From contig JASJOG010000106.1 of the NCBI GenBank assembly GCA_030142905.1, positions 869,001 through 933,000 of the forward strand: a stretch of 64,000 bases of DNA, in the 5' to 3' direction. The stretch comes from Heliopora coerulea. Taxonomy: Eukaryota > Cnidaria > Anthozoa > Scleralcyonacea > Helioporidae. The notes beneath the pieces are model-generated. The model saw only the letters and a list, made by a program, of their open reading frames with translations. It did not search any database and was not told the DNA's origin. Each line of letters opens with the position of its first letter. Within the stretch, counting starts at the first letter, position 1. Positions 8,501 through 63,769 of the stretch are shown here, piece by piece. A program made the position numbers and the translations under genes.

Positions 8501-8995
8501 ATGTTACCAAAGCTCAAGAAATACCTTACAAGACCAAACAGAACTCGAATGAAAGCAGGAACAGTGAACAATGAACTGTCTGTCGGACTACAAAATGTGC
8601 TAGACCAGGACACCAGTTCTCTTTTCAACGAGCCGTTTCGAAGTCGGGCGAGTTTTGTGGACGACAGTATTACAAGCCAGGAATTGCACTTTATTGTGGA
8701 CTATTTAGGGTATTGTCAAGTGTCCGAAGTACAGTCAATCTCGCTGCTTTTAGAAAGTGTTAAGCGAGTTAAGAAGGGATGCACGGAACCGACCCGAGTT
8801 GACTTTGTTATTAAGGAAGGTGTTTTGAAGATTTCTTCGGTCGGATGTCATGCTCTAATCTTGACTGTCCCGTTATATATTGTAGCTTTGTGTGCACAGG
8901 AATCGCTAAGGGGATTTGACAAGTGCTTTGGTGTCAACATCACAAGAAAAAATGCCCATCTTTGCTACGTGTTTCAGGCTGGCTCGAGTCTCGAG
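8501..8995 (+). CDS. GEF gene exon 1: N-terminus and most of PTB domain
   Basis: Residues 1-165. The basic N-terminus is followed by FIVDYLGYCQVSE, the typical PTB strand-1 'YLG' motif. Further on are LKISSVG, the VPLYIVALCAQE strand pair and CYVFQAGSSLE, the usual 'C-HVFQ' end of a PTB sheet. Donor GAG|GTAAGT, phase 0. PTB domains bind NPxY-type peptides or phosphoinositides (family knowledge); the ligand here is unknown. Confidence 0.9.
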
Positions 8996-11900: not shown

Positions 11901-14900
11901 AACATCTAGAATAATTAAAAAGAGTGTTTCAAGAAAAATAAGGGGATACACTGTAACTTCACCAAGCATTATCAAAAAATATTGTCCCATCAAAGGAGGA
12001 GGAATGAACATTAAAAGTGAAACAAGATGATAACAGCATTTGTATTCACACAGTACTACAGAGCATATTCCCTTTTTACTTGTATAGGACAATCTGGAGT
12101 TTTTAACATAGTCTAGTAATTCCTATTTAAGTGATGTTTCACACATTTTAAATCCATTATCATGACCATGTTGGCTATTTGTAACTTTGTATAAGTTGTT
12201 GAAAACTAATGCACAGATGTGATGTGACCATTGTCTTCATAAATTATCAGACTGTCGAAATAATAGTCTCCTTATTCAATTAAATTATTTGTAGTAATTT
12301 ATATTTTACTAGAAAGGTAACACTGTCAAATAAAGATTGAATAATTTATGTTATTTCTATCTACTATATTGTGATTTTGATTGCTGTAAAATGAATTCAA
12401 CTGTTCCAAACATGATGCAATTTGAAAATATACCTGACATGCACCATTGCATACTTAGAAGGCTTATACAATGTGATTAGTCACATTTATATGATTTTAT
12501 ACAATGTACTGTATCTGGTATGGTCTGTATACCCATAGTGAATCACTTATTGCTTATGGGGAAATTTTGTGTAGCTGTTTAGTATTTGTCATAATTAACC
12601 TCTATCTTTGTGGCAATATGTACGTATGTTGCTTGCTTGGTGTGTACTGTACATAGAAAAAAAGAATTAGAATCAGCACTGACCAGTAGGCTACTTTCAT
12701 GATACTGTTGTTTCAAATTTGGGATTTGTCTGTAGTTCTGTCCACCCTATGAACATTAATGTCATATAAACTAGTATACTGATCCAATACTTTTGGACAT
12801 ATACTAATGCTGGATATTCCTCTTACTGGCCAAAAATGAGGAAAATCAAGCAATACCTTGCCACATGCATAATGGAGTGAACTGAACTTGCTTGAAGGCA
12901 ACCTTGAGTACATATCACACTGAATATACCTGTGGGACACTTCAAAAAATACTTGAGACATACTACTGGCCATGAAATTACTTTCTGAGAGGGTGGTTGT
13001 GGAGGAAAAACAAACAAACAGATAACAAATGCCATGCAGTCCAAAGCATGTGAACCCAGAGGTAAAGTTGAGGTATTACATGTGCTGCAACAATTCTTTG
13101 GAATACCATAAAGATACTGCCACTGGTTGAAACTGCAACATAGTGATAGACCCTTTATCAGAATAGCAAACTTGAGATGAATGCAGACTATTTTTGACTG
13201 ATTGTTGACTTCATCTTTGTTTAAAGTGTTTACTAACTTAACTTACATTTTCAAAATGTTTCTCAATACTTGACCACACCAATGAAAGTTTACATCATTT
13301 TGAAATGTGCATAAAGCTCTGTTGTATGTTGGTCAAATGTGATTCAAGATTCAAGATGATTATTTAATAAGAACTACATGGCAGCCCATAAGGCTGAATT
13401 GCACAGACTTCACAAATACAATTTAAAACTACGATAAAAGAAAAGAGTAAAGTACTTATTTACAGATAAAATATTAACACACTGATTATATGCAACTTAA
13501 CATTTCGACATTGAAAGGATAAACGTATTTTTGAAACATTTCATGTGGATTAATGGGAGAGTATAAGTGTGTTTATGTCTTAAATTATACATTGGTTCAT
13601 TCTTAAGAGGCAAATTATGAAGTTTATGACAAACATCTTTTGCCACAGATTGAAACAGTCTTTTGTTCAAGTCCTGCCATTGGTCGTATAAGGATTTTAG
13701 GCCAGATGTGTTTCAATGTGTTTGAAACCTAGTGTATACTAAAAAGGCGGTATATTTTCATTGTTATCCTACTGTAGAAGGATAATCAACTGAAGAATTT
13801 GATCATTTGGCAAAAGTGGAATTTTGACTTGCATTTTTTTGGGATTCTTGAACAATGACTGACCAAAATGAGCTGTTTGTGAGTCTTTCAATAACAGTGT
13901 TCTATTTGAAGTCAGCATGTGAGACATCTTCTGGACAGCATGACATTCAGCATTCAAATTATAGTTCCCAGAATTTTTATTTTTCCTAGAGTGATTCCAA
14001 AATAGTATGCTCAGCTCTGGCAAGGAATAAAATAACAGGTTTATTTGCCCAAAAGAGTAATTTCTGTGATCAGAAAACCAAATATGGCTCCAGTTTGAGA
14101 TGAAAAGTTAAAATTGTCATTAAATGTGATCGTTTGAAATGGAGAAGTAATGCCACGAAGTTGACTTGGGTTGATCAAGAATTCTATTTGGGTTCATAAT
14201 TTATGCAATATAATTTCAATAAACGTGCACCTAAACTAAAATTTGCTTTTTTCAGGCTTCCAGCATTGTACGATCTGTTGCACTTTCATTCAAGTCTCTT
14301 GGCAAAATGTTGCGCGAGAAGAAAGAAAAAATGCGAAGGCTCATGAGGAGAAAAAGACCCCCATACTACCAACAGAACTCCATGGAATCAGATTGCTCGA
14401 TTCAGTCATGGTTTAATGATTCCAACGTGGATCCATGGCAGCAGTTTGAAACTTTGTCAAGGGTTTCCAGCATTACAAGTAAAGGTTAGTTGCAGTAAGC
14501 TGTGGCCAAGAATTTGTCTAAATAAATCAACAAAACTGTAATCTGTAATCTTCAGAAAGCTTGTGTAGCACTATGCCTTGACTGAATCATGGTAGAATGG
14601 TAGTGGTCTGCTGTGCTATACCAACTGTTTGTTGACATTCACTGATTGTCTCCTACAGTATCTTTGTATGTTTATGGTAATTCAAATAACCTTGACTGGA
14701 ATAGAGTACTCTCATCTTGACCAAAGAGCTCCTTTGTCTACCCTAGTTAAGGTGCCCTTCTTTAATCTTTGGGGAAATGCTGTAAAGTGGCTATCATCCA
14801 CCTCACTCTATTGCTTACTAAAGTTGGAAAATGAGTAAAACGAAAACTAATTTAATTTTATTTTCATAATACGTTTCAAGGAATCCGCAGGATTTGATTA

Positions 14901-17900: not shown

Positions 17901-20900
17901 TAGTGGCTTCCGCTTAGGTCGCACATATATATCGAATTTGCACCTTAGCTAACCATCTGAGTCTTGGTAGCTCAATGGTTAGAGCGTCTAACCGGTCATC
18001 AGAAGGTTGCGGGTTCGATCCCCGTCTGGGGCTCAGAAATCATTTTCTGAGTATCGAGCTTGAAGAGCGTTCATCTACCTCAAACTTTCACTTGTTAGAT
18101 TTTTTGAGACTAAATACTGATCATTTTGCTTCACAGGAGGAGACTCTGGCCATAATAGGTTGAGTGAAATCTGATTTGTTACTTTGACACGTACGAGCAT
18201 TTTAATCTAATATTATTGTCTTTAACTGCCCCTTCCTACTTCCGCCTTCTCTATGTAGTTTTATAAAACAACTCGCGTCCTACACGCGTTCTGATTAGAC
18301 GACAGTAAAGAGACACACTGCCGTTACCTTCATTTTGTATTAGAGTACAGAAATATGGATGACGTCACGAAAACTCGAAAAACATTGGTTATTTTATGAA
18401 ACAGATAAAAAGTAGCTTTGGTGTCTCTATACTGTGATAGAAACATTCATGACGGCCTTTCAACCGGAAAAATACCAGAAAACACTCGTCCACGACTCGT
18501 GTTTTCACTAGGCATTTTTCCAGTTGAAATGATGCCATTCATGTTTCTATCACTGCACAGAGACACTCAAAAGATTTTTCATTTGTTAAAACGAATTCGA
18601 TTTGAAACATTTCCCGAAAACCTTGAATCGACTTCTATATTTTTAGGAAGTGAACAGCCAAGGCAGTGTTACGTTATTCGACATGCATTTAATACACCCA
18701 CAGCAAAACGGTCGTCCACGCATCACTCGCTCAAGCATGTAGAATTCACCGCTCTCTCTCCTGTCCCATCCAACAACAGCAGCAATGAGAACAGTGCAGA
18801 AAATCTGAGTCCTGAAATAGGCGTACGTACCATACCTATTGAAGAAAAAAGAAAGGGTATGTTCTGAGTTCATGAGAATTAGCAATAAATTGCAACCACT
18901 TACAAACAGGTATACTTTTTGGTTTTATGTATCAACATTACCAGGTATATGTTTTAGCGGCAGCATGGAAATATGATGTTCTGGCAGACGTTAAGGAGCA
19001 CGTTTAACTTTAGCACCCAGTACATATTTGCTAAACTAAAACACTATGTAGAGAACATCTTCGATTTTGAAATACGTTGCCTGCAATGGTGGCATATCCG
19101 TACCTGTGTTGCTTCATTGAATGGTGATGATGGTGGCTGATATTTGAAGAACTATTTTCTATTAGTCAACTGATTACGTGTGTGTGAACGATTGTCCTAA
19201 GAGTCCTACGTTTTTGATGTGAAATGAGTTCACTGACAAGTTCGGCAATGCAGTGTCTGAGTTCACTAAATTGACCCTGAACATTTTTAAACTTTGCTTT
19301 TACCATTCGTTTTCGTTTTTTCTTCCCAATCTGGGTTCAATCATTGTTCTTATTACAAGATTTTCGTTCTAGGTGCGTTTCAAATTGAAGTAGATGTGCA
19401 TAAAGAACTAAACCAGACGCTGGGGAGTGTTGAAGAACCTAACAAAACTGTTCTTCAGCAAACCTGTGAATTATCAAGAGAGGAATCGTGTATCCCAGAT
19501 GATTATCCCGAATCAAGGTAGCGGATAAATTTCTTGTGGGCTGTTTGTTAGCTGAACTGTTTAATCCATGTTCCGTTGTTTCACACACCTTGTACGATAT
19601 TATTCTAAGGTAGCAACTTCTAAATTTGTATATTTTTAGTGTTTTCTTGAAGGACTCCACTGTTGATGAAAGGATCGAAATAGTTTTATCAGCCATACAA
19701 AGGTAAAAATGAAACTATTAAGAGTTTACGTGAGGAATGCATAGACATACTATAACAAGTCAGTTAGAAGACACAAGATAAATGGCTACAACAGCGTTCA
19801 GGTTATTCAAATTCCTTACGTGAGATCTTTCTAAAAGTCCATAAAATGTCACTGGCCTTTTGTATAAGACTAGTAAATTTTTCACGTATTTTGCATCTTA
19901 AGAATCACGAGAAAAGTTGATTTGACTTTTAAGCCGAAAAGGTTATTTTGGTACACTTGTGCCAATAGGTAGAGAAAACACAGTGTTTCAAAATACCGAA
20001 CACACTGTCTTTGGCGGAATTACTTACCGTCATTGCCAAAATGGAGATCTAACCGATTGTAAACAGAGTAGTTTGCATATTAAGGTGATAATATTTATTT
20101 CTAGGTAATTAAATTCTTGTGCGTTCTGGGTTTTTTCGAATTAACGTAGTTTTCTTTCATCAGGTTTTTCAATATTAATTCCCTATGAAAATTTCCCCTT
20201 TAAACCTTGAAATTTCCTGAGAAAATTACCCCGCTTTGTGGATCGGTTCACGTTCGGTGATGGTTCATACGTAGTGAGGGGAATAAAGAAAAATCATATG
20301 TATCGAACACTGTCAAGTGCTTACCGTATTTCGGTTATATAGCTCCTCCCGCCCTTCTGTTAAGCCTCCCTCCTGTATGGGGGTAGTTTTATTCATTGAA
20401 AAGGACGTATATTTCGATATCAAGCACTACGTGACAACGTTCTATCAAGAAACACGATCATTTAATTGAAAGTTGGTATATTTAATCACCAGTGTAACAT
20501 ATTTATATTATTATGAATTAGTATATTTATTTATAAAATTAGGAATTTTAATTGAGCATAGAAATTTAAGTCCCCAGCCTCTATTTAGCCCCTTTCTAAT
20601 AAAACCCCAGTCCAGAAACACTTGGAAAAAAACCCCGATCGGGGCTAAATACGGTTTCTTGGAATATACCACGATTACTGATGAAGTATCTTCGCGCGTC
20701 AACGTCGTCAATCAAGCATATTTGTGCTTTTTACAGGGGAGACTTGGTTTGTTTGGCTTCTTATCTTGACGATGGCGTCGAGGTAGATCTTGCTGACTCC
20801 ACAAGACGAAGCTTGCTTTTTCACGCTGTTAATTATGGCCAAATTGGTGCCGTACAACTGTTGCTCGAAAGGTATGATTTATGTTTTGACATTCTGAAGT

Positions 20901-38900: not shown

Positions 38901-41900
38901 TAGCCAGTTTTTGAAAACGCAAATTGTAAAAACTACAGATTATTTATTCTACCAGACGTAATGACTATTTTTATGTTATCTAGCTCCAACTAAACCATTT
39001 GATCAAAACTATGGCTGGTTACGGTGGTCCTTATGTGGTGTGTGCAAACCGCCTTGAAGATCTAATTGTCCACTATCAAGAAGTGGAGTCAATTCCTTTG
39101 CCTTCCCAAGATCATTGTCATCACGATGTTTTGTTCAGAAACGTAAGTAACTCAGCCAAGAAGCTTTTCTACTGCTCAGGTTTTTATTGATAGCTGACTG
39201 TAATATGAAATCTTTTATGGAAGCTATGTAGAGGTTATAATTACATTTGGAGAGATACTGCTCAGCTTTAATTCATGGAATATTAGTTGAGGTGTTCTGG
39301 ACAGAAAAAGATATTGTTTCTGTAGGACGTGCAAGGGTGTCTGCTATTTAACTGAAAAAAAATTATTTGATCACCTTGCTTGCAATACGACTATTTTATG
39401 CCTGACACTGGACATGGTGTCCCCTTGTGCGTGTATAATGAAGTACTTCGACATCTCCAAAGCTTACTGATTCCTAAGCATCCAGAAAAATTTGAATCAA
39501 TCGTTGATGGAAATGAGATGTGAGTTGAGTTCCCTCTAAGTAAATTGTAACGCATGTTCGTTATCGGATATTGTCGTGCACGATATAACAGAGTAGACTG
39601 AAGCCTCTCCAACGACAACTAGCTTGTATTGGCTTCGTTTTAAAACAGCTTGATCACATTTCGTATTCCGAAAAATGATAAGATTAGTGGACATAATCAG
39701 AATCAATTTTTATTTGTTTGTTTGTTTGTTTGTCTGTGTGATACCATTGTTTTATTAGTTGTTGTACCGTTCAAAATGCAGTTACGTACGTGTCTTTTTT
39801 GCATAAGTTTATAAGGAGGCCCTTTGACAAATCGTTTATGTCAACTCTTGTCTTCTTTGAATTTGAATAAAAACTTATTTTCGTCAGAAATGTTTTGCGT
39901 ACGTCGTAAGATGAGAACTAAATGTTTCGGAAAAGCCTTGCTTGGATGGCCATCACTTACGCAGTGAAGGAATCAGTTGTATCACTCGATTGGACTTATA
40001 CATATTAACTGGTTTTTATAACCTTATAGTGTCATCAATCTGTGCTCAATGGATCCCTGCCTGCTAAAATCGATGATGCTATTTACCTGGCCGCGTTACA
40101 ATTGTACATTGAGGTAATTTTATTCTGTGTCGTACAATTCTTGACAAAATAGTTTGTTCCTTTACAACAGCGATTTTCAAGTTGGGAGCTTAACTGGGAG
40201 TTCTAGAAGTTTACCGATTTTACCATCACCACTCAGAGTTTTGCGTCTCTGACATTGGTGTTATGAAGAGAGAGAAGGGATATGGCAACATAAATTTAAA
40301 GTACTGAATGAACTGAAGACTAACCAGACGAACCCATTATATGGAGTTTGTTGCATGACTTTGATTCGCTCAGAATATTTTGTACGAAATAAGATTTATG
40401 CGTTGTCGTGGTAACTTTTAACATATACCCGATTCACTTTTAATCTGAAGAAGAAAAGAGCTACCTGTGAAGAATTTTATTGTTATGGGATCATAAGGTT
40501 ATCAAAAACTAAGCGACTAAAGGAGCGATCGAAAATTGTAATCCCCAAGCAAGCTTCTCTTTTTACTGTACTAGTAGGGTTTTCTAATCATGTTAGTTAT
40601 TCACCTAACCGTAGTTTGATAACGATCTGATTCCTTCCAGATATCGTCACTGGGTGACCAGTCCCCTGCAAACAAGGTCTTCCGCACTGATAGTGGTATA
40701 GAGAAAGTTTCCACGTCCCGAGTGAAGCTCTGTCTTAATCCTGCTTTCCACAAAGTGAAAAATGTCTTCAAGCGAGTGCGTGCGTATTACGAACAAATTG
40801 CACGTGACGCACCTTCCCAGCGTAAGGCGAAGCACGACTACATCGATTGTTGCCAAGGAATGGTTGGATATGGTTGCAGGTTTTTTCGTGTAAAGGTAAG
40901 GGATGGCAACCGGAATTCTTATCAGTTTCGAACCATACTGTAAGATGTCAGAGGTTGGTATCTGCCGTGACTGATGGCAAATTGAGACTTCTAACGTTTC
41001 GCGCAAAGGCCCTTCATAATTTTTTACGTTACTCAACACTGTCTACGCAGTATCCTGTTTATCATTGTAAAATGTCATTGTAGCAGTGGAGGAGTCGGGT
41101 TAATTGCTCCTTACGCCTGGCAAAACTAAAACATTTTTCTGGAAGCAGCCGGTTGTCAGATTTTCTGGTTTTGCCGACTGACACAGATGTTACAGAAGCT
41201 AAGTTTCTGGAACGCGTGACTCATTTTTCGCGTGGGACAAAACTAGGAGACCTAGTAAATGGTTTCTATAGTGTTTGTAGTAGTGTCTCTCAGTTTTGTT
41301 AAGCGATTATATTGGGCTCATGATTTACATTAAAGAGGACTATCAAACCAAAAGTCACGGAGTCGAAACTGCTTAGCGACGAAAATAGCCTTGTTTGCTT
41401 GATTTTTATCCGTAGGTATTCTGTAGTTAAGGTTTAAATTATGATTTATTTGCCGTGTCCGCAAACCATGTGGACATTGCCAAAGGTGCGTACATAGTTC
41501 GCCACAGTCGCCAGTGCCGAACATTCCTTCAGTTGTGGTAAAAATAAATTGTATGCTCACCACATTCGTGAAAACAATTTAAAGAGCTGAAATATGAGGT
41601 ATTTAAGTAATATTTATCAAATCAATCTAAATGCATAAAATGCTGAGGTGAAGTGCCATTGAACTTTCACCCGTAGTCCTGGCTGTCAGGGTGAATTTCA
41701 TATTAACTCGTTCAACGCATATCCGAAGGCAGGGAAGTTTCTAAAACTACCAAAAAGTATTACCCAGATACTATAAAAATGGTTAAACATGGCTGGAAGA
41801 AAATTTTCACTTTGGTAGTCATGCAACTGAAGAACAATCAAGATAAAATTTTCTAACCTGCAACTGGCTAATGCACTGTCTGGTAAAAATTAAGTTTTGA

Positions 41901-44900
41901 CAAAATGTTAAAACCGAGGTTCAAAATATAATATGAAAATAAGAGCCCAAGATGGAGAACCATATCGTCAGAAGTGAATAAAAACGATTAAAATAATTTT
42001 GTTGACGTCTCGTCGCCTGCGTTCAACTTCATCATAGTAGCAGTGGGGTCGTGCAGGCCTTTTCGAACTATACGGGTAGTTTTGTACGTCATGAACGCCT
42101 GGACGCCCGGGCTTTCAGATTCAAATCTACGTGGCCGCGTGAACTCGAATTCCAGCATAAAATTAGTGGCTGCATGCTGTTAGAAACAAATATGTGGTAC
42201 TTGTTTATCATAAAAAATATTAATGATTGGGAATTGATGATCATTTTGATCATGGCTTACAGGAATTCTCTAGTTGCAACAAATCGCATATGAATAAACG
42301 ACTGATTGGAATAAGTCCAAAAGAAGTTGTCCTCCTCGATGGAAAGACGCGATATATTGTGAAAAAATGGGATTTGAAGAATCTACTTGGCTGGAAAGCT
42401 GAAGGGAACGAGGTGTTACATTTGTTGTTTTCGGAATCTAGTTTTCACTTGGTTTCTGACAGCAAAGCTGGGCGAGAACAACTTCAAGACACCATTAAGC
42501 AATGCATATACGAGAGAAACTGTGAGGTATTTTAGAAACATCTTCATATCATAACATTTATAGTAAGTGATTGGTTGGCTTATGCCGGATATGGAAAGTT
42601 AATCACCAAACGTTTTGATGTTTGCATAGCTCATATCTTCGTATTATTGTATATAGGGAATAATCAACCGCTTTTAGCGTTCGGATATTGTGACCCAAGC
42701 ACTTCGATTATTGCTCGATTTTTCAAAATAAGAAAATACCTCTGGCTGCTCATATATATATTTTTAAACACATTTCTCCAGTCACGCAGCATACCAAATG
42801 TTTGGATCACTGTATCCAAACGTGGAAGACCATCAGGTACTTCTTAAATCATTTGATGTATTCAAAAGAAATATTTGATAAATTTGATAAACCATTTTAA
42901 GAAGGAAAGTACCATCGGCTACCTCGGGTTCCATGGTAACCATAACATGCAAAGCAGAATATCTAAGTGAAGTTCATTTTTTTGCTAGCGTAGCTTGGTG
43001 ACTTCGAATATCGCAGCGGACAACCTTTCTTCAAGCGCTAATTCGACCCAAAAATATGTTCAAATGTATATCAGCAGTCAGTTTGTAACTATTAAGCCTT
43101 GATCACCCTACTTCTAAGAATGTACAACAATCGGGGACCGAGCTGTCTCCGATTTTGTACAATTCTACAGATTTTGAAGTTCATATTGTTGAAAGAATTG
43201 CTGACTACTGAAATCATTAAGTCTGCATGATCGCCAAATAATCAATGCAAGTCGCTGGAAGTTACAACCTGCCTTCTGTATGGCCGCCAACTTGCATCAG
43301 CTTTCACTGATTTGCTGCCAGATTAGGCGTGCTCATATTTTATAGTCAGGTTCGAAGGTTTTCTTTGACTTGCGTCGAATTGCTATCTTGTTCGACCATC
43401 ATCTCTGTTCAAGTTGCAGCAGGTTGTTAACTTGCGACGACTTTTATCCGAGTTTCAGTGGTTTTTTAATGGGAAAACGTAAACTCTGAACTGATGATAA
43501 ACACGATGCCGGGTATTTCTCATACTGACCTTCCTAGACTAACAAAGTAAACGTCATCCTTCTTATGAGCTTTTATTTTCTTTAAAGCTACGATTCTTTT
43601 ATTTTCTTTAAAGCTACGATTCTTTTATTAAGCCCATTTATGTGAAAGGAATAAGACGCAGCTTGCATTCATGAGACACGAACTTACCCGAGTTTTGCAT
43701 TGGATGTGGGGCTTACGTAAAACGTGCATGGGCATCATTTTTGAACTATTTTAACAAGCATTGTCTCGCCTCACATAAGGTGTGTGTCTTGTAAACTGTG
43801 TCTTATTCCTCTCGTATGAATGTTCCTGTTGCTTTATTCTCTCAGTTTTCATTCAATCTCAGTTTATTTATCAACGACTTGCTCATTGCCCGTGTTCCTG
43901 AATATCTTAGGGCTTGAACGAAAACGACTTCTTACCTTGGAGTCGGAGATCTGAAGAAAAACGTAACTGGGGTAACAAAGCAATGGAGGAGGAATTGAAG
44001 AATAGGCTTGAAACCCTTTCAAAAGAGACAAAAATTTCTGAGAATCAGGATGAATGGAAATCTCTCTGTTTGTTGTACAGAAAGCCGGAGGGAGAAGGTT
44101 GGTCAGCAAGTGTTCATTTTTACGAACACCCGATTATCTTTCGTGGTGAATTTATAAATCGTCGGTTGTTCTTTTATATTCACTAGAGCGTCGGTTCCGA
44201 CGACATTCTTCGGCTTCTGCGAAATCTTCAGAGAGGCGTCGCGTTCGTTTGAGTTCCACTGTTCAACAACCATATAGTACCAGCACTACTGACGAAGACC
44301 CTGACTGTGGTGACCATGGTGTCTCAGTGCCAATGATGGCGTACAGCGTTGGTACCCTTGAACAAAGAGGTTTCGAAACGCCAGAGTTTTCGAGATCTCG
44401 TACAAGTGAGTTTGTCAAACTTGTATGTACATCAGCTATCAATTGACCAGGCAGGAAGCATAATCTAATTGGGAATATAAAAGGTCTGCGTAATACATTT
44501 AATAATAGTATTCTAACAATGAAAACGTAAAATATAACGTAAAATTGTGAAATGTAAAGTAAAAACGTAAAATGTAACAAAAATGTAAGAACGAAACGTT
44601 AGAATACTATTTAATATTATGATTTTACTTGTCTCTCAATGGCTTTCATAAAGATGTTATGCTGAGTTTTGATATTCGTAATTAGATTGAGCTTGTACGT
44701 ACGTCTTGAGTTAGAATAATCAATAGCGAATTTTCCAGTTTTCGACATTTTCAGTTTTTTCGCATTAAAAATTTCCTAACGTTACAATGCTGCATACTAA
44801 CGTTGTAGAATGCAGACCGAACAGACTCAGTAACTTGCTCACTATAATGCCCGCCTGAAAATTGGGAGTTCTTCGAAGCCCGAAGCGTTCTGAAACAGAA

Positions 44901-47900
44901 ATTTAACACGTTCACGCTAATTACTAAGCGTGAAGTGAGAAATAGGTAGTCAATGAAGTTAATGTATGCGCTTCTTAAGTATTGAGGTTATTATTATAAT
45001 TGTTATTTTCAGTTCGTATCAAATTCCCTAAACGTCTGATCATTGAGATGTATATTTTGTAAATATGGGAGCTTGGAGATATCTTGAATGATCGCTAAAC
45101 GTTCTTCAAGCTCTATCCTCAGAAAACAATTTCTGAGCGTCAGACGGGGATCAAATCCGCAACCTTCTGATGACCCGTGAGACGCTCTAACCATTGAGCT
45201 ACCAAGACTCAGATGGTGAGCTAAGGTGCAAATTCGACATATGTGCAACCTAAGCGGAAGCCACTGTAATATTATGAGATACATATTTTGGAAATGTGAG
45301 CTTGGAGCCATCTTGAATGATAGATGAACGTTTGCCAAGCTCTGTCCATCTGAAAGCGTTATTAACATATAATGGCTTCCGCTTAGGTCGCACATATTGT
45401 CGAACTTGCACCTTAGCTCACCATCTGAGTCTTGGTAGCTCAATGGTTAGAGCGTCTAACTAGTCATAAGAAGGTTGCGGGTTCGAACCCCGTCTAGGGC
45501 TCAGAAATCTCTTTTTCTGAGAATAGAGCTTGACGAACGTTCATCTATCATTCATGTCTGATCATTGTTCGGACATCAGATCTGGTTGACTGTATATCAA
45601 GCATATCGGTGAAAGCAGAGGTAATTAAGGAACTCACAGTATATCCCAAATATTTTTCTTATATAGCCTCGATCAAATGAATAAACCATGATGGTAAAAG
45701 TCCTCCCATCATTATTTCGTAAAGCATGTACTTGTTTGTAGTCTTGTTTCTACCACTTATGATCTGCGAAGTACGACGTGTCAAAACCTCCTTCAGACAT
45801 CCTCCAACGCCTCGTGCACATTATCGCAAGTGTTTGATGAACACTTGTCAAGAGATAAAAGGGTTAGAGAACTGCGAAAACTTTCCAGGCAAAATACTTA
45901 AATTCGTACTGCAGACAGACTGACGACAGCGGGCGTAGAGGGCGTATGTTTGTGTGTAGATTTGTACATACTAATTTAAAGCTTAGATATAAATCATTTT
46001 CACCTTGCAGCTTGTACGAAAACGTCGTCAATTCCCAGTCATTCTAGAAACTATTCGGAGAGTAGGACTGGAAACCGCAGCAAAGAAAACTCGAATGAAA
46101 ATCACGATGGGTTCAATTACGGGAATGATGAGAGGATTTCGTCAAAGTTTAAACTATGTCTGTGTCCACCTGATGCGGAACTGCAAGGTTTCAATCGAGT
46201 TAACTTCACGTACGTCAAATAAGTACTATTTCTATCTTGTTTAAAGTGAGCCCTATTTACGGTTTAAACTGCAAAGCAACCTACATACGTATTGACATTA
46301 TGATGGCAATTTGTGGCACAGGAGTAAGATATTAGTGAAAAAACCTGTCATTGAAAGTATTTGAAACATCGGAACATAATTTGTCAGCTATTTGGTGCTT
46401 TTTATTTCAATTTCGTGACGTTCCCCATACAGTTTAGTCGGCCATCACCATGATGCTTTACGATGGATATAGCTCTTATGTAATGAACAACTGTTGCAAA
46501 CCAACTTTACGGACATGATGCTTTACAAACACTTTCAGGGGTACATATATCAGGCTTACGAGTGGTGGGGATGTATGACATACGACGAATTTGATCGTCT
46601 TTAAAAGAGTATTAACGTATTCTTGATTTGTGTTTAAGAATATGTTCCTGTCCACAAACGATGAAACAAATAAAACTTTGAAAAATTTTGTTCAAATTAT
46701 TCATTTTGACATGTTGTGATGAATTCGATCTACTTTGTCACTAAAATGACTTTGAAGATTTTGCTAACGTGACGTTTGCCTGTTTTCTCAGTCCTTTGCA
46801 GCTTCTTCAATTTCCTCGTGAACTTGCTCGACAAATAACCCTGATCGATCATGAACTCTTCAGAAAAATAACCACCGCGGATGTACTTAAACGGGTGTCT
46901 GAAGGCACGTCCAAAAAGCGAAAGAAAGGAGAGGAGAACTCTGAACAAACTACCGTCAAAATGTTCTCTGATCGGTTTAATCAGTTGAGCTCTTGGGTTG
47001 TCTCAAGCCTTTTGAAAGAGAATTCCGATCAAGATACTGCAGACATGGTAGTGCAATTCATCGAAACGGCCAAGGTAAGACATGTGTCATTCTGTTCGTG
47101 AATATGTTGCTGTGATTGCATACAATACTTGTCGTGATGAGGTAATGAGCGTCTTACGTAACTATATGATCGGCAACAGTCCTTTGTTAAATCTAGGAGA
47201 AAAGGGTAAAATTTGCGTCAGCCTACACCGGCTATCAGCACAAGTTTCCGTCACAATGTAATTGGTCTCCTCTGTTTACACATGATCTTTTGGAAATTAC
47301 TTTTTCAACTCGTCATATTCATCATTACATATATTATGTAGAGTCTTGGGCATTAAAACAGTGGTTTACAAAGAGAGAAGTCCCGAGCTGTATTGTGTAA
47401 ACGAGGATGACAATCGCGGAACTCACTTACGAAAAAAGACGTTGACTGAAAGCAAAGTCTATAGGCCCTTAACACTGGTTCTTTGTTTCGTACTAGATTT
47501 AAGTATTATTTTGTCTCTGGAATTCTTTTTGTTGTGATATAAGTCTGATTTCAAGTTTAGCTTCCAAGTTTACAAAGTCACAAACTTCAGTAGGTTTCTA
47601 ATGACGCAACAAATGCATAGTCTTAGTTCACATCGGTTAATTCCGGATGGAATTGACACATTACCTTTGGCTTGTGTCCCAAACTGCTTTCCACCAGGCT
47701 TCCTAGTGACCCTAGGGAATTCATTGACACAAGGCTAATTCCGTATCTTTGTTAAAGCCAGACATTTAAATTTTTTACTTACGGGCCATAATTATTCGTT
47801 AATACCAATTTCCCAGGCAATATGAAATTCGACAATGACAATGACATGACTCTACAAGTAACGCAAGCATAACGAGGAGGGATTATGATGGATTTGGGAC

Positions 47901-49836
47901 TACAAATTTTTCATTTTTGTTGTTCTGAATGGAAAGTTCTGTCGCGAGCAAGACGTTGACGTAAGATATTCCCATAGTGTTTGTTTAACTCTTTCCCGGC
48001 GACAAAGGACTTATATTATTTTCCTCTTGCTAACGCCAGGCAATTTTACTCTTCAAAGGGAGAACTCCCACAGTGAACGAGTTAGTACACTTATCGTCAT
48101 TAATCAGCTATCCCACTGCTCAAACTTTTAACATTTTCAGCAATGCCTCGAGCTACGAAACTATAATGCAGTGATGGCGATTGGCGTTGGAGCTCTATGC
48201 AGTGCCCCCGTACGGCGTTTGCGCAGGGTTCGCGAGTTGATTCCTAAGTTGTATCTCGACCAACTGCACATAATGGAGGTACTGATGGACTCCAGGGAAA
48301 ATCACAAGAAATACCGCGACTCATTAAAAGTTTGTCCAAGTCCAGCTGTGCCGTATTTTGGTAGGTACTGAAAGGTTCCAGTGTTGTATGACTTACGCTT
48401 GACATCCTTGAAGAGTTAGACTTAGAAATTGAATGGAAAAGCCGTTGCATTTACTTTTTATGTAAAAGGCAGGTATGTTGCCATCTTAGTTCCCAATTAG
48501 TTCCCAAGGTCTAATCGTTATTGGAAATTCGACGTCCTGAATCCTCACAATTCACATTTTACTTTAAGTTTCATCATTGTGGTCCGCGTTAGCTGTTGGC
48601 ATGCTGGTGCACTGTGACGGTATGTTAATGTTAAAACAAGCCCTCGTAGTCTGTAGCGAAGAGATCAAATGGAGGCTCGTAAGATCTCAAGAGGCTCCTA
48701 AGATCTCCAGAGGCTCCCAAGAGGTTCCCTTGTGTGTCTCGAACAATTGCTCCGTCTTGACAAGGTTAGGTTGGAGTATTGTATAGTTACATGTGCGATC
48801 CGAATGTTCCAGAGTCTGGGATGTCTGCCAGGCTTCTGTCAACGGTGGGTGGGTGGGGCTTATAGCAGTACATTATATACCTGATATAAATCCAGGTGGT
48901 TTCGTGTTTTGTCAGGTGTGTACTTGAAAGACCTTATTTACATCTCTGAGGGTAATCCTGACTACCTCAATGGTGGAATGATCAATCTTGGTAAACGAAG
49001 GTTATTGTATGCTGTGCTGCATCAAATCCGTCGCTTTCAAGTAAAATCCTATAATTTCGAACAGGTGAGATGGAGCGAAACATGATGAGCTGGAAATGTA
49101 GATAATGTTTGTGATTGAGAGAAATGTTTAACTGCTAGACTTCTTGCCAGATTAAATGAGAACTAGACTTAGAAATCCCTTCTGACGCAGACAATGGATT
49201 TGATAAGTAATTTTAAAACAGAATCTATATATTTACAAGTATAATGATAAAAGAACCATGAATTTAGTAAAAAAATCCCCGTTACAATCTAAATATTTTA
49301 GCTAATCCTTTTAAGCACGATAATTTCAAATTTTTAATTGAAGAGCACTCGTTTTTTTTCACTCACTTTTTTTCATGATGCAAAACGAACAGTTTTGCAT
49401 CATCGAGATTTCATTTGAATTTTTACCGATCTTATGAAAAATTCGTCAAATTTCCAACGTTTGCAGTCAGTCATTGATCCACCAACTTAGGAATTGAAAG
49501 AATAACACATTGGGTAATTACCCTACAAGGCTGTCATGGACTCGGGCCCACACTGTTTGTAAATCCACGATTCTTTGACAAGAGGAAACTGCAGAGAACA
49601 TCCCACCGAAAACAGTTTTGAGTATGGTCTGAAGTCCTAACAATTTTGGGAGTAAGAAAACTCAACTTGTTGCTTTTCAGGTTTCAGAAATTCAGGAGTA
49701 TCTCTTAAACACCGAGAGATATACTGAAGAAGAACTGCACCGAATGTCGCGTAAACTTGACGTCAGCTCTAGACACACTGTCTCCGAAGGAAGTCAGGAG
49801 GTACCAATGTCTGTGTCAGCAGTCTCATTAGCTTAA
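8501..49836 (+). CDS. PTB-ankyrin-armadillo-REM-FERM-RasGEF multidomain protein (29 exons, 2,002 aa)
   Basis: Probable cytoplasmic scaffold and guanine-nucleotide exchange factor for a Ras-family GTPase. Reconstructed exons sum to 6,009 nt; all donors are GT, all acceptors AG, and every phase is compatible. Approximate residues: PTB 61-185; ankyrin repeats 381-512; Ser/Thr-rich linker 513-833; armadillo-like helical repeats 834-1130; RasGEF-N/REM 1149-1310; FERM F2/F3-like 1320-1532; basic/Ser-rich linker 1533-1730; RasGEF catalytic 1734-1965; short tail to 2002. Start: the first ATG of the open exon lies 60 codons before the PTB fold, with no acceptor-like need for an upstream exon, though a further 5' exon cannot be excluded. 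Stop TAA is at 49834-49836. GTPase specificity is not readable. Symmetric exons could be missing in long introns, for example intron 22, because their loss would not show in phase. Confidence 0.88.
9062..10200. other. 5' part of intron 1, CpG-rich, nothing recognised
   Basis: Ordinary AT-rich intron with frequent CpG. Short open frames occur but none shows a domain or splice logic. It contrasts sharply with the CpG-poor block that follows. Confidence 0.5.
10201..14255. other. CpG-depleted block filling the rest of intron 1
   Basis: Reading line by line I find about 12 CpG in roughly 4.05 kb (about 3 per kb), against roughly 30-45 per kb in the kilobase just upstream. TpG and CpA are plentiful, as expected if methylated CpG has decayed. 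No open frame with a domain and no transposon ends were recognised. The low density continues past exon 2 to about 14.83 kb, interrupted only by CpGs inside the exon. Confidence 0.75.
14256..14484 (+). CDS. GEF gene exon 2: PTB C-terminal helix and linker
   Basis: Acceptor TTTTTTCAG; phase 0 in, phase 1 out; donor AAG|GTTAGT. It begins ASIVRSVALSFKSLGKML, the amphipathic C-terminal helix that closes a PTB groove, then a Lys/Arg-rich coil and a polar linker. Confidence 0.88.
15285..17400. mobile_element. Penelope-like element, diverged inverted pair (locus A)
   Basis: Two decayed PLE 3' halves point away from a centre near 16.4-16.5 kb. Left, minus strand: VYRKPTQNDRLLDKSP near 16.36 kb (end of RT), GAVYKIKFANC near 16.0 kb (start of GIY-YIG), and SLNRSEQLPAPCKR near 15.6 kb, ending with a GACGTTTCGACGGCCTC-type 3' tail. 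Right, plus strand: IYRKLTHSGRLLDVSSYN near 16.54 kb, AQLFCDSPDALRNQ, YAGENGRNAKTRL, then TLENWFTEW in another frame, and the matching 3' tail near 17.3 kb. Both arms carry frame breaks, so neither is functional. It lies in intron 2 of the GEF gene. Confidence 0.82.
15721..15843. mobile_element. 123-bp MITE nested in PLE locus A
   Basis: Near-perfect hairpin. The left end AGTAAAAAGTAAAGCAAATT pairs with the right end, with short unpaired sequence around 15770-15790. It is flanked by TTGA on both sides (15717-15720 and 15844-15847), a likely target-site duplication. It is non-coding. Confidence 0.7.
17708..17779 (-). tRNA. tRNA-Thr-like sequence, probably a mobile-element head
   Basis: Cloverleaf-compatible: D-stem GCTC/GAGC, T-loop TTCGATC. 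The anticodon loop reads CCGGTCA (GGT, Thr) with C instead of U at position 33 and a mismatch in the anticodon stem. The acceptor stem relies on several G-U pairs. It is probably a tRNA-derived repeat, not a working gene. Confidence 0.4.
17961..18032 (+). tRNA. tRNA-Thr-like sequence, mirror copy of the previous one
   Basis: Reverse-complement partner of 17708-17779 with one base change in the anticodon stem. Same loop CCGGTCA (GGT) and same intact internal pol III boxes. Same doubts about function. Confidence 0.4.
18647..18856 (+). CDS. GEF gene exon 3: polar linker
   Basis: Acceptor TATTTTTAG, donor AAAG|GGTATGT region with GT at 18857; phase 1 in and out. Encodes residues 242-311, rich in Ser, Asn, Glu and Pro, with no recognised fold between PTB and ankyrin parts. 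Confidence 0.78.
19373..19517 (+). CDS. GEF gene exon 4: acidic linker
   Basis: Acceptor TTCGTTCTAG; donor CAAG|GTAGCG, a weaker donor; phase 1 in, phase 2 out. Encodes an acidic stretch with ELNQTLGSVEEP and DDYPES, no known domain. Confidence 0.75.
19640..19702 (+). CDS. GEF gene exon 5: short helical segment
   Basis: 63 nt, phase 2 on both sides, acceptor TATTTTTAG, donor AAAG|GTAAAA. Encodes SVFLKDSTVDERIEIVLSAI, which looks like the lead-in helix of the ankyrin stack. Confidence 0.75.
20737..20871 (+). CDS. GEF gene exon 6: ankyrin repeat 1
   Basis: Phase 2/2, acceptor TTTTTACAG, donor AAAG|GTATGA. The pattern GDLVCLASYLDDGVEVD then LLFHAVNYGQIGAVQLLLE fits the ankyrin helix-turn-helix consensus. 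Confidence 0.88.
21177..21308 (+). CDS. GEF gene exon 7: ankyrin repeat 2
   Basis: Phase 2/2, acceptor ATATTTAG, donor AATT|GTAAGT. Encodes GATVNWEGPNDMSPLHQAA followed by AQLLLAKGANVRAKD, a textbook ankyrin repeat with the SPLHQAA helix start. Confidence 0.93.
21968..22503. mobile_element. MITE-like element rich in GGGTNACCCT motifs
   Basis: Roughly 530 bp in intron 7. Inverted ends GAAGGGTAACCCTCC and GGGGTAACCCTACCTTC bracket several internal copies of GGGTGACCCT/GGGTCACCCT. It is non-coding. The exact edges and target duplication are not resolved. Confidence 0.5.
22819..22945 (+). CDS. GEF gene exon 8: ankyrin repeat 3
   Basis: Phase 2 in, phase 0 out; acceptor CCGCTTTAG; donor CCG|GTGGGT. 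Encodes RTPLHMCAGHPSGTEMSCIL then VEHGARICDNSIDGTRPLDL, a canonical ankyrin repeat plus the beginning of the next. Confidence 0.92.
23399..23422. repeat. (CA)n microsatellite
   Basis: About eleven CA units in intron 8. Confidence 0.95.
24007..24304 (+). CDS. GEF gene exon 9: Ser-rich linker
   Basis: Acceptor TTTTCCCTCCAG, donor GGAG|GTTAGT, phase 0 in, phase 1 out. Starts with a helix (DLKELQSRLVQSVCEAF), then SRSNSATSTQSYQSGFSAL, a low-complexity Ser/Thr region likely to be phosphorylated. Confidence 0.85.
24945..25250. repeat. Cluster of TTTCACATGTGAAA-like palindromes
   Basis: About nine degenerate copies of a 14-bp palindrome (TTTCACATATGAAA, TTTCACAAGTGAAA, TTTCACATCTGAAA and others) in alternating forms. 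A second cluster lies at 55.94-56.11 kb. Non-coding; probably a palindromic repeat family. Confidence 0.7.
25760..26771. mobile_element. TA-flanked DNA transposon remnant carrying a nested PLE fragment
   Basis: Ends TA-CCCAGAGCCGTA at left and TACGGCGCTGGG-TA at right are inverted (one mismatch) and flanked by TA, as in Tc1/mariner-type insertions. A second paired block CTGGGGCAAATT lies just inside each end. Between them is a PLE fragment. No transposase frame remains. Confidence 0.65.
26030..26690 (+). mobile_element. Penelope-like 3' fragment (locus B)
   Basis: Degenerate GIY-YIG block with GCRHLYQHIEEHKVTAIGKH, followed by the 3' tail that contains AAGATGACATCGAAACGTTC and TTATTCTTCTATCGCTTAC, shared with locus C. 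It is a single 5'-truncated copy, coding broken. It is nested in the TA-flanked element of intron 9. Confidence 0.78.
26885..27378 (+). CDS. GEF gene exon 10: large polar linker
   Basis: Acceptor CATCTTAATTTAG, donor CAG|GTATGG, phase 1 in, phase 0 out. 494 nt encoding an acidic, Ser/Thr-rich, probably disordered segment. The frame stays open past the donor for 47 codons to TAA at 27520-27522, giving a possible short isoform (see findings). Confidence 0.85.
28255..28425 (+). CDS. GEF gene exon 11: linker before armadillo repeats
   Basis: Phase 0/0, acceptor TTTCCCTTCCAG, donor CGG|GTAAGT. Polar sequence with FQDSVGPSKETDSGLGYPE, no known fold. Confidence 0.83.
28543..28797 (+). CDS. GEF gene exon 12: first armadillo-like repeats
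   Basis: Phase 0/0, acceptor AATTTTGTAG, donor AAT|GTAAGT. Contains VLLALNSLVKLCFNPECQ and ESVAILIKNLAN, hydrophobic spacing typical of ARM helices. The exon has no ATG near its start, so simple ORF lists miss it. Confidence 0.85.
29416..29505 (+). CDS. GEF gene exon 13: armadillo-like repeat
   Basis: 90 nt, phase 0/0, acceptor AAAACGTAG, donor CAG|GTATCA. RRRAAEAGFVRTVLELAEA is the ARM 'aGgv..Lv.Ll' helix start, continuing the preceding NLAN helix. Confidence 0.86.
30295..30503 (+). CDS. GEF gene exon 14: armadillo-like repeat and loop
   Basis: Acceptor TCTTGCCCTAG, donor ACG|GTGAGT, phase 0 in, phase 2 out. TTCLEVLDNLLKDVK completes an ARM unit; the rest is a polar insertion. Confidence 0.83.
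31063..31152 (+). CDS. GEF gene exon 15: polar insertion in ARM region
   Basis: 90 nt, phase 2/2, acceptor GCTATTGACAG, donor ACAG|GTTTGT. Encodes ELQSGKPKNVLISKEP and an acidic tail; no fold recognised. Confidence 0.72.
32091..32155. repeat. Short degenerate (ACATAG)n microsatellite
   Basis: Imperfect ACATAGACATAG-type units next to PLE locus C in intron 15. Confidence 0.7.
32213..33052. mobile_element. Penelope-like element, inverted pair with internal deletion (locus C)
   Basis: Ends are reverse complements (AAATGTGAGCAATAGAAG... and ...CTTCTATCGCTTACATTT). On the plus strand a GIY-YIG block reads CRHFHQRIEEHKVSAIGKH, upstream of the tail with AAGATGACATCG. On the left a shorter minus copy retains only the tail (32213-32320) and a 50-bp piece (32327-32376) that forms a near-perfect hairpin with 32392-32443. 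Non-functional. It lies in intron 15. Confidence 0.82.
33316..33480 (+). CDS. GEF gene exon 16: armadillo repeat
   Basis: Phase 2/2, acceptor CTGTTTTCAG, donor CAAA|GTAAGA. Contains EIVYNAVVSLANIAMHHGNH then LLNSGAVEKLRRLI, the clearest ARM repeat in the gene. Confidence 0.93.
33527..35060. mobile_element. 1.53-kb fold-back (long inverted repeat) transposon
   Basis: Begins TGGTGGCCCAGG and ends CCTGGGCCACCA. Arms of several hundred bases pair through the element, including AT-rich AAAATAAAAT arrays (33590-33735 opposite 34930-35005) and a block around 33770-33880 opposite 34820-34905. Flanks GTTGTGTA (33519-33526) and GTTGTGTG (35061-35068) look like an 8-bp target duplication with one change. 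Only the central 150 bp or so are unpaired. No transposase frame. It lies in intron 16. Confidence 0.85.
36170..36535 (+). CDS. GEF gene exon 17: end of ARM region and start of RasGEF-N (REM)
   Basis: Acceptor CTCTCCTTCTAG, donor ATAG|GTTAGT, phase 2/2. AYYHVCRALVYLSEDDEQCD closes the ARM solenoid. An acidic spacer leads to IKGGSLETIVRILT, matching the REM 'GTLekLVe.Lt' start, then a basic insertion (SRGGRGKGPKRKTK) and VEFFLATYPTYTNAVVLMRL, the REM 'FLlTYrsF' motif. Confidence 0.92.
36505..36912 (+). repeat. Minisatellite derived from exon 17 end plus its splice donor
   Basis: About seven to eight diverged copies, period near 50-57 bp. The first unit is the exon end itself (GGTATTGATGAGGCTGTTG... 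then ACATAG|GTTAGTAAAC). Later units repeat ATTAATGAGGTTGTTAACAC and TTAGTAAACATT, with CACCATGATATT between. Some units keep GT donors. Confidence 0.8.
37963..38122 (+). CDS. GEF gene exon 18: RasGEF-N (REM), second part
   Basis: Acceptor GATATTTAAG, donor CAG|GTTTGA, phase 2 in, phase 0 out. PALHMALMRIWEIWLEKFP and DFRENSLL correspond to the REM helix 'vl..Wle.yp.DF...p.L'. Confidence 0.92.
38984..39142 (+). CDS. GEF gene exon 19: REM end and lead into FERM
   Basis: Phase 0/0, acceptor TATGTTATCTAG, donor AAC|GTAAGT. LQLNHLIKTMAG completes the REM helical bundle; the rest (EDLIVHYQEVESIPLPSQDH) is a linker or a degenerate FERM F1/F2 boundary. Confidence 0.85.
39709..39736. repeat. (TTTG)n microsatellite
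   Basis: Five to six TTTG units in intron 19. Confidence 0.85.
40030..40113 (+). CDS. GEF gene exon 20: FERM F2 start
   Basis: 84 nt, phase 0/0, acceptor AACCTTATAG, donor GAG|GTAATT. PAKIDDAIYLAALQLYIE matches the FERM central helical lobe ('d.A..LAALqlq.e'). Confidence 0.87.
40641..40895 (+). CDS. GEF gene exon 21: FERM F2 and start of F3
   Basis: Phase 0/0, acceptor GATTCCTTCCAG, donor AAG|GTAAGG. It begins SLGDQSP, continuing the previous helix. It ends AKHDYIDCCQGMVGYGCRFF, the hallmark FERM stretch ('A...Yl.l.q.l..YG..fF.vk') joining F2 to the PTB-like F3. Confidence 0.93.
42263..42526 (+). CDS. GEF gene exon 22: FERM F3 (PTB/PH-like)
   Basis: Phase 0/0, acceptor ATGGCTTACAG, donor GAG|GTATTT. 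KRLIGISPKEVVLLDGKT then IVKKWDLKNLLGW and FHLVSDSKAGREQLQDTI follow the FERM C-lobe pattern of strand, strand and final helix. Confidence 0.92.
43565..43628 (+). repeat. Tandem duplication of about 30 bp
   Basis: Two back-to-back copies of TTTTATTTTCTTTAAAGCTA plus CGATTC in intron 22. Confidence 0.85.
43911..44097 (+). CDS. GEF gene exon 23: charged helical linker
   Basis: Acceptor ATATCTTAG, donor AAG|GTTGGT (weak), phase 0 in, phase 1 out. Lys/Glu-rich helix (KAMEEELKNRLETLSKETK) with possible coiled-coil character. The long preceding intron may hide a further exon. Confidence 0.8.
44187..44405 (+). CDS. GEF gene exon 24: basic Ser/Arg-rich linker
   Basis: Acceptor ATTCACTAG, donor ACAA|GTGAGT, phase 1/1. 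RRFRRHSSASAKSSERRR is strongly basic with RRxS-like sites (candidate basophilic-kinase sites or a membrane/nuclear signal). An acidic Ser/Thr stretch follows. Confidence 0.83.
45137..45208 (-). tRNA. tRNA-Thr-like sequence, degenerate
   Basis: 72 nt. Loop CGGGTCA (GGT in anticodon position), G at position 33, T-loop TTTGATC mutated. Probably a pseudogene. Confidence 0.3.
45429..45500 (+). tRNA. tRNA-Thr(AGT)-like sequence, best-preserved copy of the family
   Basis: 72 nt. Acceptor GTCTTGG pairs with CTAGGGC through several G-U pairs. D-stem GCTC/GAGC is intact. Anticodon loop CTAGTCA has U33 and anticodon AGT. T-stem GCGGG/CCCGT encloses TTCGAAC. One mismatch in the anticodon stem. It sits in a repeat, so function is doubtful. 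Confidence 0.45.
46011..46209 (+). CDS. GEF gene exon 25: linker into RasGEF domain
   Basis: Acceptor TTTCACCTTGCAG, donor CAC|GTACGT, phase 1 in, phase 2 out. In the phase-consistent frame it is fully open: TKTSSIPSHSRNYSESRTGN, then FKLCLCPPDAELQGFNRVNF leading into the GEF fold. A different frame is also open (reads LVRKRRQFPVILET) but does not fit either junction. Confidence 0.82.
46792..47074 (+). CDS. GEF gene exon 26: RasGEF catalytic domain, part 1
   Basis: Acceptor GTTTTCTCAG, donor AAG|GTAAGA, phase 2 in, phase 0 out. FPRELARQITLIDHELFRKI is the diagnostic CDC25-homology start. RFNQLSSWVVSSLL matches 'rFN.ls.wV...Il'. A Lys-rich insertion (TSKKRKKGEEN) lies between. Confidence 0.96.
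48141..48360 (+). CDS. GEF gene exon 27: RasGEF catalytic domain, part 2
   Basis: Acceptor ACATTTTCAG, donor TTTG|GTAGGT, phase 0 in, phase 1 out. QCLELRNYNAVMAI matches 'C..LnNfns.maI'. RRLRRVRELIP replaces the usual 'RLkkTWe.lp', so the Thr-Trp pair is absent. ENHKKYRDSLKVCPSPAVPYF matches 'NfknYR..l....PciPf'. Confidence 0.95.
48916..49064 (+). CDS. GEF gene exon 28: RasGEF catalytic domain, part 3
   Basis: Acceptor GTTTTGTCAG, donor CAG|GTGAGA, phase 1 in, phase 0 out. GVYLKDLIYISEGNPDYL and INLGKRRLLYAVLHQI are very close to the family consensus 'GvyLtDLtfieegNpd' and 'iNf.Krr'; RRFQVKSYNF follows 'i..fQ...Y.f'. Confidence 0.96.
49681..49836 (+). CDS. GEF gene exon 29: RasGEF end and C-terminus
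   Basis: Acceptor TTGCTTTTCAG, phase 0. VSEIQEYLLNTERYTEEELH is the closing GEF helix and 'S..iEP'-type region; a Ser-rich tail ends at TAA 49834-49836. Confidence 0.93.
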   Translation, partial: VSEIQEYLLNTERYTEEELHRMSRKLDVSSRHTVSEGSQEVPMSVSAVSLA

Positions 49837-52226: not shown

Positions 52227-52540
52227 ATAGTACTTCTTCCAAGTGAATCGAACCCATATCGGGTAAGTAGAGAAAAATTCTACTTGACCGCGGCTGGATA
52301 GGACCGCAGAAGCTTTACAGATATAGTCTGGTCGACATGGAAGAAACTAGCGTTTCGATATGTCATATAAATACCATCATCCCATGGCCTCCTCCCGGCT
52401 TGGCCTTGTAGCTCAGTTGGTAGAGCGTCGGACTAGTAAACCGAAGGTCCCGGGTTCGAATCCCAGCCGCGGTCAAGTAGAGTTTTTCTCTACTTACCCG
52501 GTATGGGTTCGATTCACTTGGAAGAAGTACTATCCTTATA
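52224..52540. mobile_element. Inverted-repeat element containing a tRNA-like sequence
   Basis: Arms of about 70 bp (52224-52294 and 52464-52536) are reverse complements, sharing GATAGTACTTCTTCCAAGTG at the outside. The inner arm overlaps the 3' end of the tRNA-like sequence. CAGAAGCTTTACAGATATA is directly repeated near 52306 and 52582. (TA)n tracts flank both sides. Confidence 0.7.
52402..52475 (+). tRNA. tRNA-Thr(AGT)-like sequence
   Basis: D-arm TAGCTCAGTTGGTAGAGC is perfect. Anticodon loop CTAGTAA gives AGT. T-loop TTCGAAT with box B GGTTCGAATCC. Acceptor GGCCTTG pairs with CGCGGTC with one mismatch. Placement inside an inverted-repeat element suggests a tRNA-derived repeat, although it could still be transcribed. 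Confidence 0.5.
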
Positions 52541-52797: not shown

Positions 52798-52890
52798 TAT
52801 ACATACATACATACATACATACATACATACATACATACATACATACATACATACATACATACATACATACATACACACACACATACATAC
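52798..52890. repeat. (ATAC)n microsatellite
   Basis: About 20 ATAC/CATA units, with an ACACAC interruption near the right end. Confidence 0.95.

Positions 52891-54227: not shown

Positions 54228-63769
<9,542 letters not shown>

What the first reader, a model, noticed from the sequence alone, without database searches (positions are those of the whole stretch)
8501..49836. One gene joins PTB, ankyrin, armadillo, REM, FERM and RasGEF domains
29 exons with unbroken phase give a 2,002-aa protein with two peptide/lipid-binding folds (PTB and the FERM F3 lobe), two solenoids and a CDC25-type exchange domain. Known RasGEFs such as SOS, RasGRF, RAPGEF and KNDC1 have other partners. I cannot name a characterised protein with this order, so it may be an undescribed link from receptor tails or adhesion to Ras-family GTPases. 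Domain calls are seen in the sequence; function is inference.
Basis: partly seen in the sequence, partly recalled or inferred. Interest (0 to 1): 0.88.

Follow-up and report, generated by a model that had tools for sequence, protein, structure and literature searches.

The report
Coral RasGEF with talin-like receptor-binding module
This coral gene encodes one large, uncharacterised protein that joins two receptor-tail-binding folds, one of them closely like the integrin-binding part of talin, to an enzyme domain that switches on Ras-type signalling proteins; related proteins occur in other cnidarians but were not found in bilaterian animals in our searches.

The parts
8501..49836 (+). whole coding gene, 29 exons, 2,008 aa
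8501..8995 (+). exon 1: start codon, N-terminus and most of PTB (aa 60-186 span exons 1-2)
   Evidence: PID; Numb/ARH/GULP-type by profile
14256..14484 (+). exon 2: end of PTB and basic helix
18647..19702 (+). exons 3-5: linker; exon 5 runs into the ankyrin block; acceptors of exons 3 and 5 uncertain
19656..24030 (+). ankyrin repeats, aa 366-520, exons 5-9
   Evidence: model, VIA
24031..28605 (+). long poorly conserved linker, exons 9-12
   Evidence: 51% to Dendronephthya, 13-23% to the other family rows; coordinates
28606..36233 (+). armadillo-type helical solenoid, aa 855-1130, exons 12-17
31063..31152 (+). possible cassette exon, 30 aa, phase-neutral, no match in the Dendronephthya protein; not in the 2,008-aa model
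36291..39091 (+). REM (RasGEF_N), aa 1150-1320, exons 17-19
39113..40865 (+). talin-like F2 lobe, aa 1328-1440, exons 19-21
40854..42526 (+). talin-like F3 (PTB-fold) lobe, aa 1437-1538, exons 21-22; tryptophan at the column of talin W359
43926..43973 (+). conserved motif after F3 (majority form DFSPWSKYAEE..TWG), function unknown
43980..46195 (+). poorly conserved linker before the catalytic domain, exons 23-25
46196..49779 (+). CDC25-type RasGEF catalytic domain, aa 1736-1990, exons 25-29

Best explanation
The gene encodes a multi-domain guanine-nucleotide exchange factor for a Ras-family GTPase, recruited to receptor tails at the membrane. Shown by sequence or model: PTB - ankyrin - armadillo - REM - talin-like F2-F3 - CDC25 in one chain, conserved as a unit. 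Inferred: the Numb/ARH-type PTB and the talin-type F3 each dock NPxY-like motifs in receptor tails (integrin beta tails are the leading candidate for F3) and F2 adds membrane contact; this places the REM-CDC25 unit next to prenylated Ras or Rap, which it loads with GTP. Ankyrin and armadillo solenoids would hold further partners or keep the protein closed until a tail binds. Because F2-F3 sits directly between REM and CDC25, tail binding could change REM-CDC25 geometry, so F2-F3 may be a regulator as well as an anchor. Ras is a slightly better guess than Rap.
Confidence: 0.6

Rival explanations
1. F2-F3 is an internal regulatory lobe: it packs on REM-CDC25 and gates catalysis (as PH-DH or cAMP domains do in other GEFs, recalled), binding lipids or nothing outside; only the PTB or solenoids recruit the protein.
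For: F2-F3 lies directly between REM and CDC25 and lacks F1. The R358 column is G in the two octocoral rows.
Against: The tryptophan equivalent to talin W359 is kept in 14 of 16 rows, and the lobe pair resembles talin, including integrin-bound talin, most. Inter-domain confidence was not given by the tool and not examined.
Confidence: 0.2
2. Mainly a Rap GEF that drives adhesion (inside-out integrin control), so that F2-F3 brings it to the integrins that Rap controls.
For: Talin-like module; weak similarity to the KRIT1 ankyrin and FERM C-lobe models (6 and 5 of 14 members at E<=0.1); RasGRP2-Rap1B in the fold list.
Against: By sequence, Ras GEFs score above the Rap GEF Epac2 and RASGRF above RAPGEF in the family profile.
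Confidence: 0.15
3. Two or more separate genes chained by the model.
For: No RNA evidence; a 5.3 kb intron between exons 1 and 2; long unconserved linkers.
Against: A single 2,003-aa Dendronephthya protein aligns end to end; the order recurs in the 13 of 16 rows with the whole PTB, including a protein that EukProt gives as a complete ORF of one assembled transcript (P0013); three domain junctions lie inside exons.
Confidence: 0.04

Closest known systems
Talin (F2-F3 of the head)
   Same: F2-F3 fold and sequence, including the tryptophan in the integrin-binding strand
   Different: no F1 seen, no talin rod family in Pfam scans; carries REM and CDC25 instead
RASGRF1/2, SOS, yeast Cdc25, RasGRP
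   Same: REM plus CDC25 catalytic domain
   Different: their partners are PH/DH, SH3, EF-hand/C1 and so on (partly, partly recalled); the family's CDC25 domains form one side of a branch, 100/100, against 17 chosen other RasGEFs
RAPGEF2/6 (REM-PDZ-RA-CDC25)
   Same: a regulatory domain between REM and CDC25 (order recalled)
   Different: PDZ/RA in place of F2-F3; lower CDC25 similarity
P0027, an unnamed REM-RasGEF with ubiquitin-like segments
   Same: RasGEF chain with a stretch matching the talin-head F0 model (FERM_f0 1.4e-14)
   Different: no F2-F3 match with the family profile, no PTB, ankyrin or armadillo; outside the family in the tree
KRIT1 (CCM1)
   Same: ankyrin followed by FERM; weak matches to its ankyrin and FERM C-lobe models
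   Different: no GEF; full three-lobe FERM (recalled)
Numb / ARH / GULP PTB adaptors
   Same: PTB of that class
   Different: small adaptors without enzyme domain (recalled)

Membership tests
RasGEF (CDC25-type GEF) | CDC25 catalytic domain | tested here: met
   Pfam 4.3e-52; PDB best 2.5e-31
RasGEF (CDC25-type GEF) | REM (RasGEF_N) upstream | tested here: met
   Pfam 3.2e-8, 34.2 bits against cut-off 28.3
RasGEF (CDC25-type GEF) | exchange activity on a Ras-family GTPase | not testable with these tools
   conserved core residues only
Canonical FERM protein | F2 and F3 lobes | tested here: met
Canonical FERM protein | ubiquitin-like F1 lobe before F2 | tested here: not met
   the stretch before F2 is REM; the model has no beta-grasp there and no FERM_N family appears or among the 25 families shown; the model's mean pLDDT is 61
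Talin | helical rod with vinculin/actin-binding modules after the head | tested here: not met
   no talin rod family or among the 25 families shown; a linker and CDC25 follow F3
Talin | binding to integrin beta tails | not testable with these tools
   W359-equivalent kept in 14 of 16 rows
RASGRF / SOS / RAPGEF subfamilies | CDC25 domain groups with the subfamily | tested here: not met
   17 family rows form one side of a branch, 100/100, apart from 17 other RasGEFs chosen; RasGRP, RalGDS and KNDC1 were not in the tree
KRIT1 | ankyrin plus FERM without a GEF domain | tested here: not met
   RasGEF present; F2-F3 nearer to talin (8e-23) than to KRIT1 (3.7e-5)
Numb/ARH-type PTB | PTB fold of that class | tested here: met
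   profile E 4e-10 to 3e-8; predicted strands and C-terminal helix; the PTB model alone was not searched by fold

The most novel reading that the evidence does not exclude
A pre-animal, single-chain switch that reads integrin-type NPxY tails through a talin-type F2-F3 (and a second tail through a Numb-type PTB) and directly loads Ras or Rap, kept in Cnidaria and lost in Bilateria, where the same job is split among talin, adaptors and separate GEFs.
Probability: 0.3. Interest if true: 0.8.

Novelty: new variant of a known kind. Interest (0 to 1): 0.62.

Why it matters
Among the 142 proteins that the three homologue searches listed, only the 27 family rows match the talin-type F2-F3 profile. If the inference holds, this is a one-molecule path from adhesion-receptor tails to Ras-family signalling, probably older than animals and missing from the usual bilaterian models, and testable in Nematostella or Hydra, where the gene is present but unnamed.

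Tried and rejected
A first gene-finder run without a realistic intron cost overfitted to 266-521 exons and was discarded; penalties were raised. From the 34-exon model I dropped 16509-16981 and 17304-17443 (no counterpart in Dendronephthya), 17715-17747 (overlaps a tRNA-Thr-like element on the other strand), an empty exon at 35155, the cassette 31063-31152 (kept as a possible alternative), 48593-48764 and 48813-48844; the exon 18441-18856 was shortened to 18647-18856; exons 19640-19702 and 40030-40113 were added.

Rejected: 'two genes' (see rivals); 'full FERM'; a MyTH4-FERM reading (myosin rows align about 300-320 residues at rmsd 15-18, so not informative). PTB fold rows were not seen because ankyrin filled the lists; that absence says nothing.

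Shorter hits P0132-P0140 and P0142 (no RasGEF in their domain lists) were first taken as a second architecture. The two that I read (P0132, P0137) look like long exons read out of context: they start inside the solenoid and stop soon after F3; the others were not read. A regular-expression look for the F3 tryptophan in P0131-P0142 matched none of 12 because the pattern was badly written (it misses P0131, whose sequence shows LKRW); it is not used as evidence. On re-checking I saw that P0027 carries a talin-head F0 model (PF16511); it was scanned and has no F2-F3, so it is reported as a neighbour, not a member.

The genome search did not complete. Papers: ten searches listed no paper that, by title, abstract start or term counts, describes this order; I opened passages of PMC6040629, PMC10198623, PMC11597407 (no match) and PMC8931153 and no whole text. 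The library lacks most subscription journals. I recall a 2009 CDC25-domain phylogeny in a subscription journal that was not seen.

Full report
WHAT IS THERE. A Viterbi exon-chain search with GT-AG sites and codon preferences trained on the window gave first exon 8501-8995 and last exon 49681-49836. With frozen parameters the target scores 280.3, the other strand 14.5, and 6 of 6 first-order Markov sequences 0.1 to 4.7; training on the target favours it. tblastn with the nearest homologue placed the exons one by one. The curated model has 29 exons, 2,008 aa, no internal stop and 28 GT-AG introns. The acceptors of exons 3 and 5 are the least certain. Junctions between armadillo and REM, REM and F2, F2 and F3 lie inside exons 17, 19 and 21 (domain limits set by me).

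DOMAINS. On the 2,008-aa model, Pfam reports above cut-off PID (21.1 against 20.9 bits), ankyrin, RasGEF_N, FERM_M and RasGEF; IRS/PTB at F3 falls below its cut-off and armadillo-type families stay below theirs. In the earlier 2,341-aa model, which lacked one F2 exon, FERM_M and PID were just below their cut-offs. Among 14 homologues at E<=0.1: RasGEF 14, FERM_M 14, Ank_2 13, RasGEF_N 13, IRS 12, Arm 9, PID 7. AlphaFold models of the Dendronephthya homologue (8- and 7-row alignments; mean pLDDT 61.3 and 64.5, with long disordered linkers) show a PTB with C-terminal helix, ankyrin helices, a helical solenoid, REM, a helical F2, a seven-strand F3 with helix, and the helical CDC25, whose C-terminal part is low in confidence. 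No beta-grasp F1 lies before F2.

PTB AND CATALYTIC DOMAIN. The PTB profile (9 rows) matches Numb 4e-10, ARH 6e-9, GULP 3e-8, ANKS1B 3e-4: NPxY-type adaptor PTBs (binding class recalled). The CDC25 domain matches 2ije (RASGRF1 by recall), yeast Cdc25, RalGPS1 and SOS1 before Epac2. With a CDC25 profile built from the family, 17 family rows score 368-451 bits and the best other RasGEF 187. In a maximum-likelihood tree of 34 rows (17 family, 17 others chosen by hand) the family forms one side of a branch with 100/100 support; the deeper order of RasGEFs is unresolved and several outside rows are long-branched.

WHO HAS IT. The first search (region REM to CDC25; 4,321 candidates) gave 14 hits. 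Eight carry organism names, all cnidarian: Dendronephthya, Oculina, Actinia, Nematostella, Rhopilema, Acropora, Actinostola, Hydra, called 'uncharacterized' or 'hypothetical'. A search from P0013 (only the 7,999 candidates sharing most words scored; 141 hits, 120 listed) added P0015; 5 listed rows belong to the family and the other 115 are other RasGEFs, led by an unnamed REM-RasGEF (P0016) and RASGRF. A search with the family consensus of REM and F2-F3 (lengths of about 373-1186 aa; 4,887 candidates) gave 12 hits; the one with an organism name is the coral Desmophyllum. In the tree, 14 cnidarian-type rows form a clade (98/94); P0013 and P0015 pair together outside it (98/93); P0014 lies between with weak support (88/63). 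P0013's name has the form of old Trinity/TransDecoder output; the choanoflagellate study PMC6040629 used those programs (passages), so a choanoflagellate is likely but not verified. P0013 and P0015 carry PID, ankyrin, REM, FERM_M, F3 (IRS) and RasGEF matches, REM just below its cut-off in both. Domain identity to the window is high and linkers low: for Nematostella PTB 65, ankyrin 51, Arm 45, REM 36, F2-F3 40, CDC25 50 against linkers 16-23%. 13 of 16 rows cover the whole PTB; P0002, P0007 and P0014 lack most or all of it, P0007 most of the ankyrin block and P0008 part of REM, perhaps through incomplete models.

A NEIGHBOUR. P0027, an unnamed 1,922-aa REM-RasGEF, holds a stretch that matches the talin-head F0 model (FERM_f0 1.4e-14) and other ubiquitin-like segments, but no F2-F3, PTB, ankyrin or armadillo. 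It lies outside the family.

HOST. Window and Dendronephthya pair with 100/100 support and 85% identity in CDC25; Dendronephthya is an octocoral. So the window comes from an octocoral or close kin, judged by this one gene.

MECHANISM. Most likely a receptor-tail-recruited GEF for a Ras-family GTPase: PTB and F3 read NPxY-type tails, F2 adds membrane contact, REM-CDC25 exchanges nucleotide, and the solenoids scaffold or close the protein. Shown: the parts, their order and their conservation. Inferred: each binding partner, the GTPase, and regulation. A rival gives F2-F3 an internal gating role; both could be true. Integrin is a leading guess only, since talin-type F3 also binds other tails.

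NOVELTY. New variant of a known kind: a distinct RasGEF family with a talin-type F2-F3 between REM and CDC25 and two further scaffolds. Ten paper searches listed nothing that describes it, and none of five gene identifiers was found; the library is partial and listed papers were mostly seen as titles and abstract starts.

Noticed in passing
58242-59765: Two GIY-YIG ORFs (58202-58768 minus, 59230-59796 plus; Pfam 1.4e-5 and 1.5e-6) form an inverted repeat, arms 451 nt 97% and 86 nt 99% complementary; probably a Penelope-like or other mobile element remnant (inference).
   Followed up: partly
17706-17780 (-), 17961-18034 (+), 45429-45502 (+), 52401-52476 (+): Four tRNA-Thr calls, three within introns of this gene and one downstream; probably tRNA-derived short repeats rather than tRNA genes (inference).
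   Followed up: no
1056-1512, 33590-33708, 36511-36910, 52799-52891, 59860-60037: Tandem arrays: degenerate hexamer CTTATC, a 17-base unit, a 51-base unit (also read as 99 and 151), ATAC and TA repeats.
   Followed up: no
43926-43973 and 46157-46180: Two conserved motifs outside named domains: after F3 (PWS..AE....WG) and CxCPPDAE just before CDC25 (C, C and the first P invariant in 16 of 16 rows); functions unknown.
   Followed up: partly
18736-18771 (exon 3): A short motif HVEF(S/T)xLSPVPS in the first linker is kept in the two octocoral rows and the aligned sea anemone and stony coral rows, not in the medusozoan-type rows or P0013-P0015; possibly a docking or phosphorylation site.
   Followed up: no
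P0027 (unnamed source, 1,922 aa): A REM-RasGEF with several ubiquitin-like segments, one matching the talin-head F0 model: a second, apparently separate pairing of a talin-head element with a RasGEF.
   Followed up: partly
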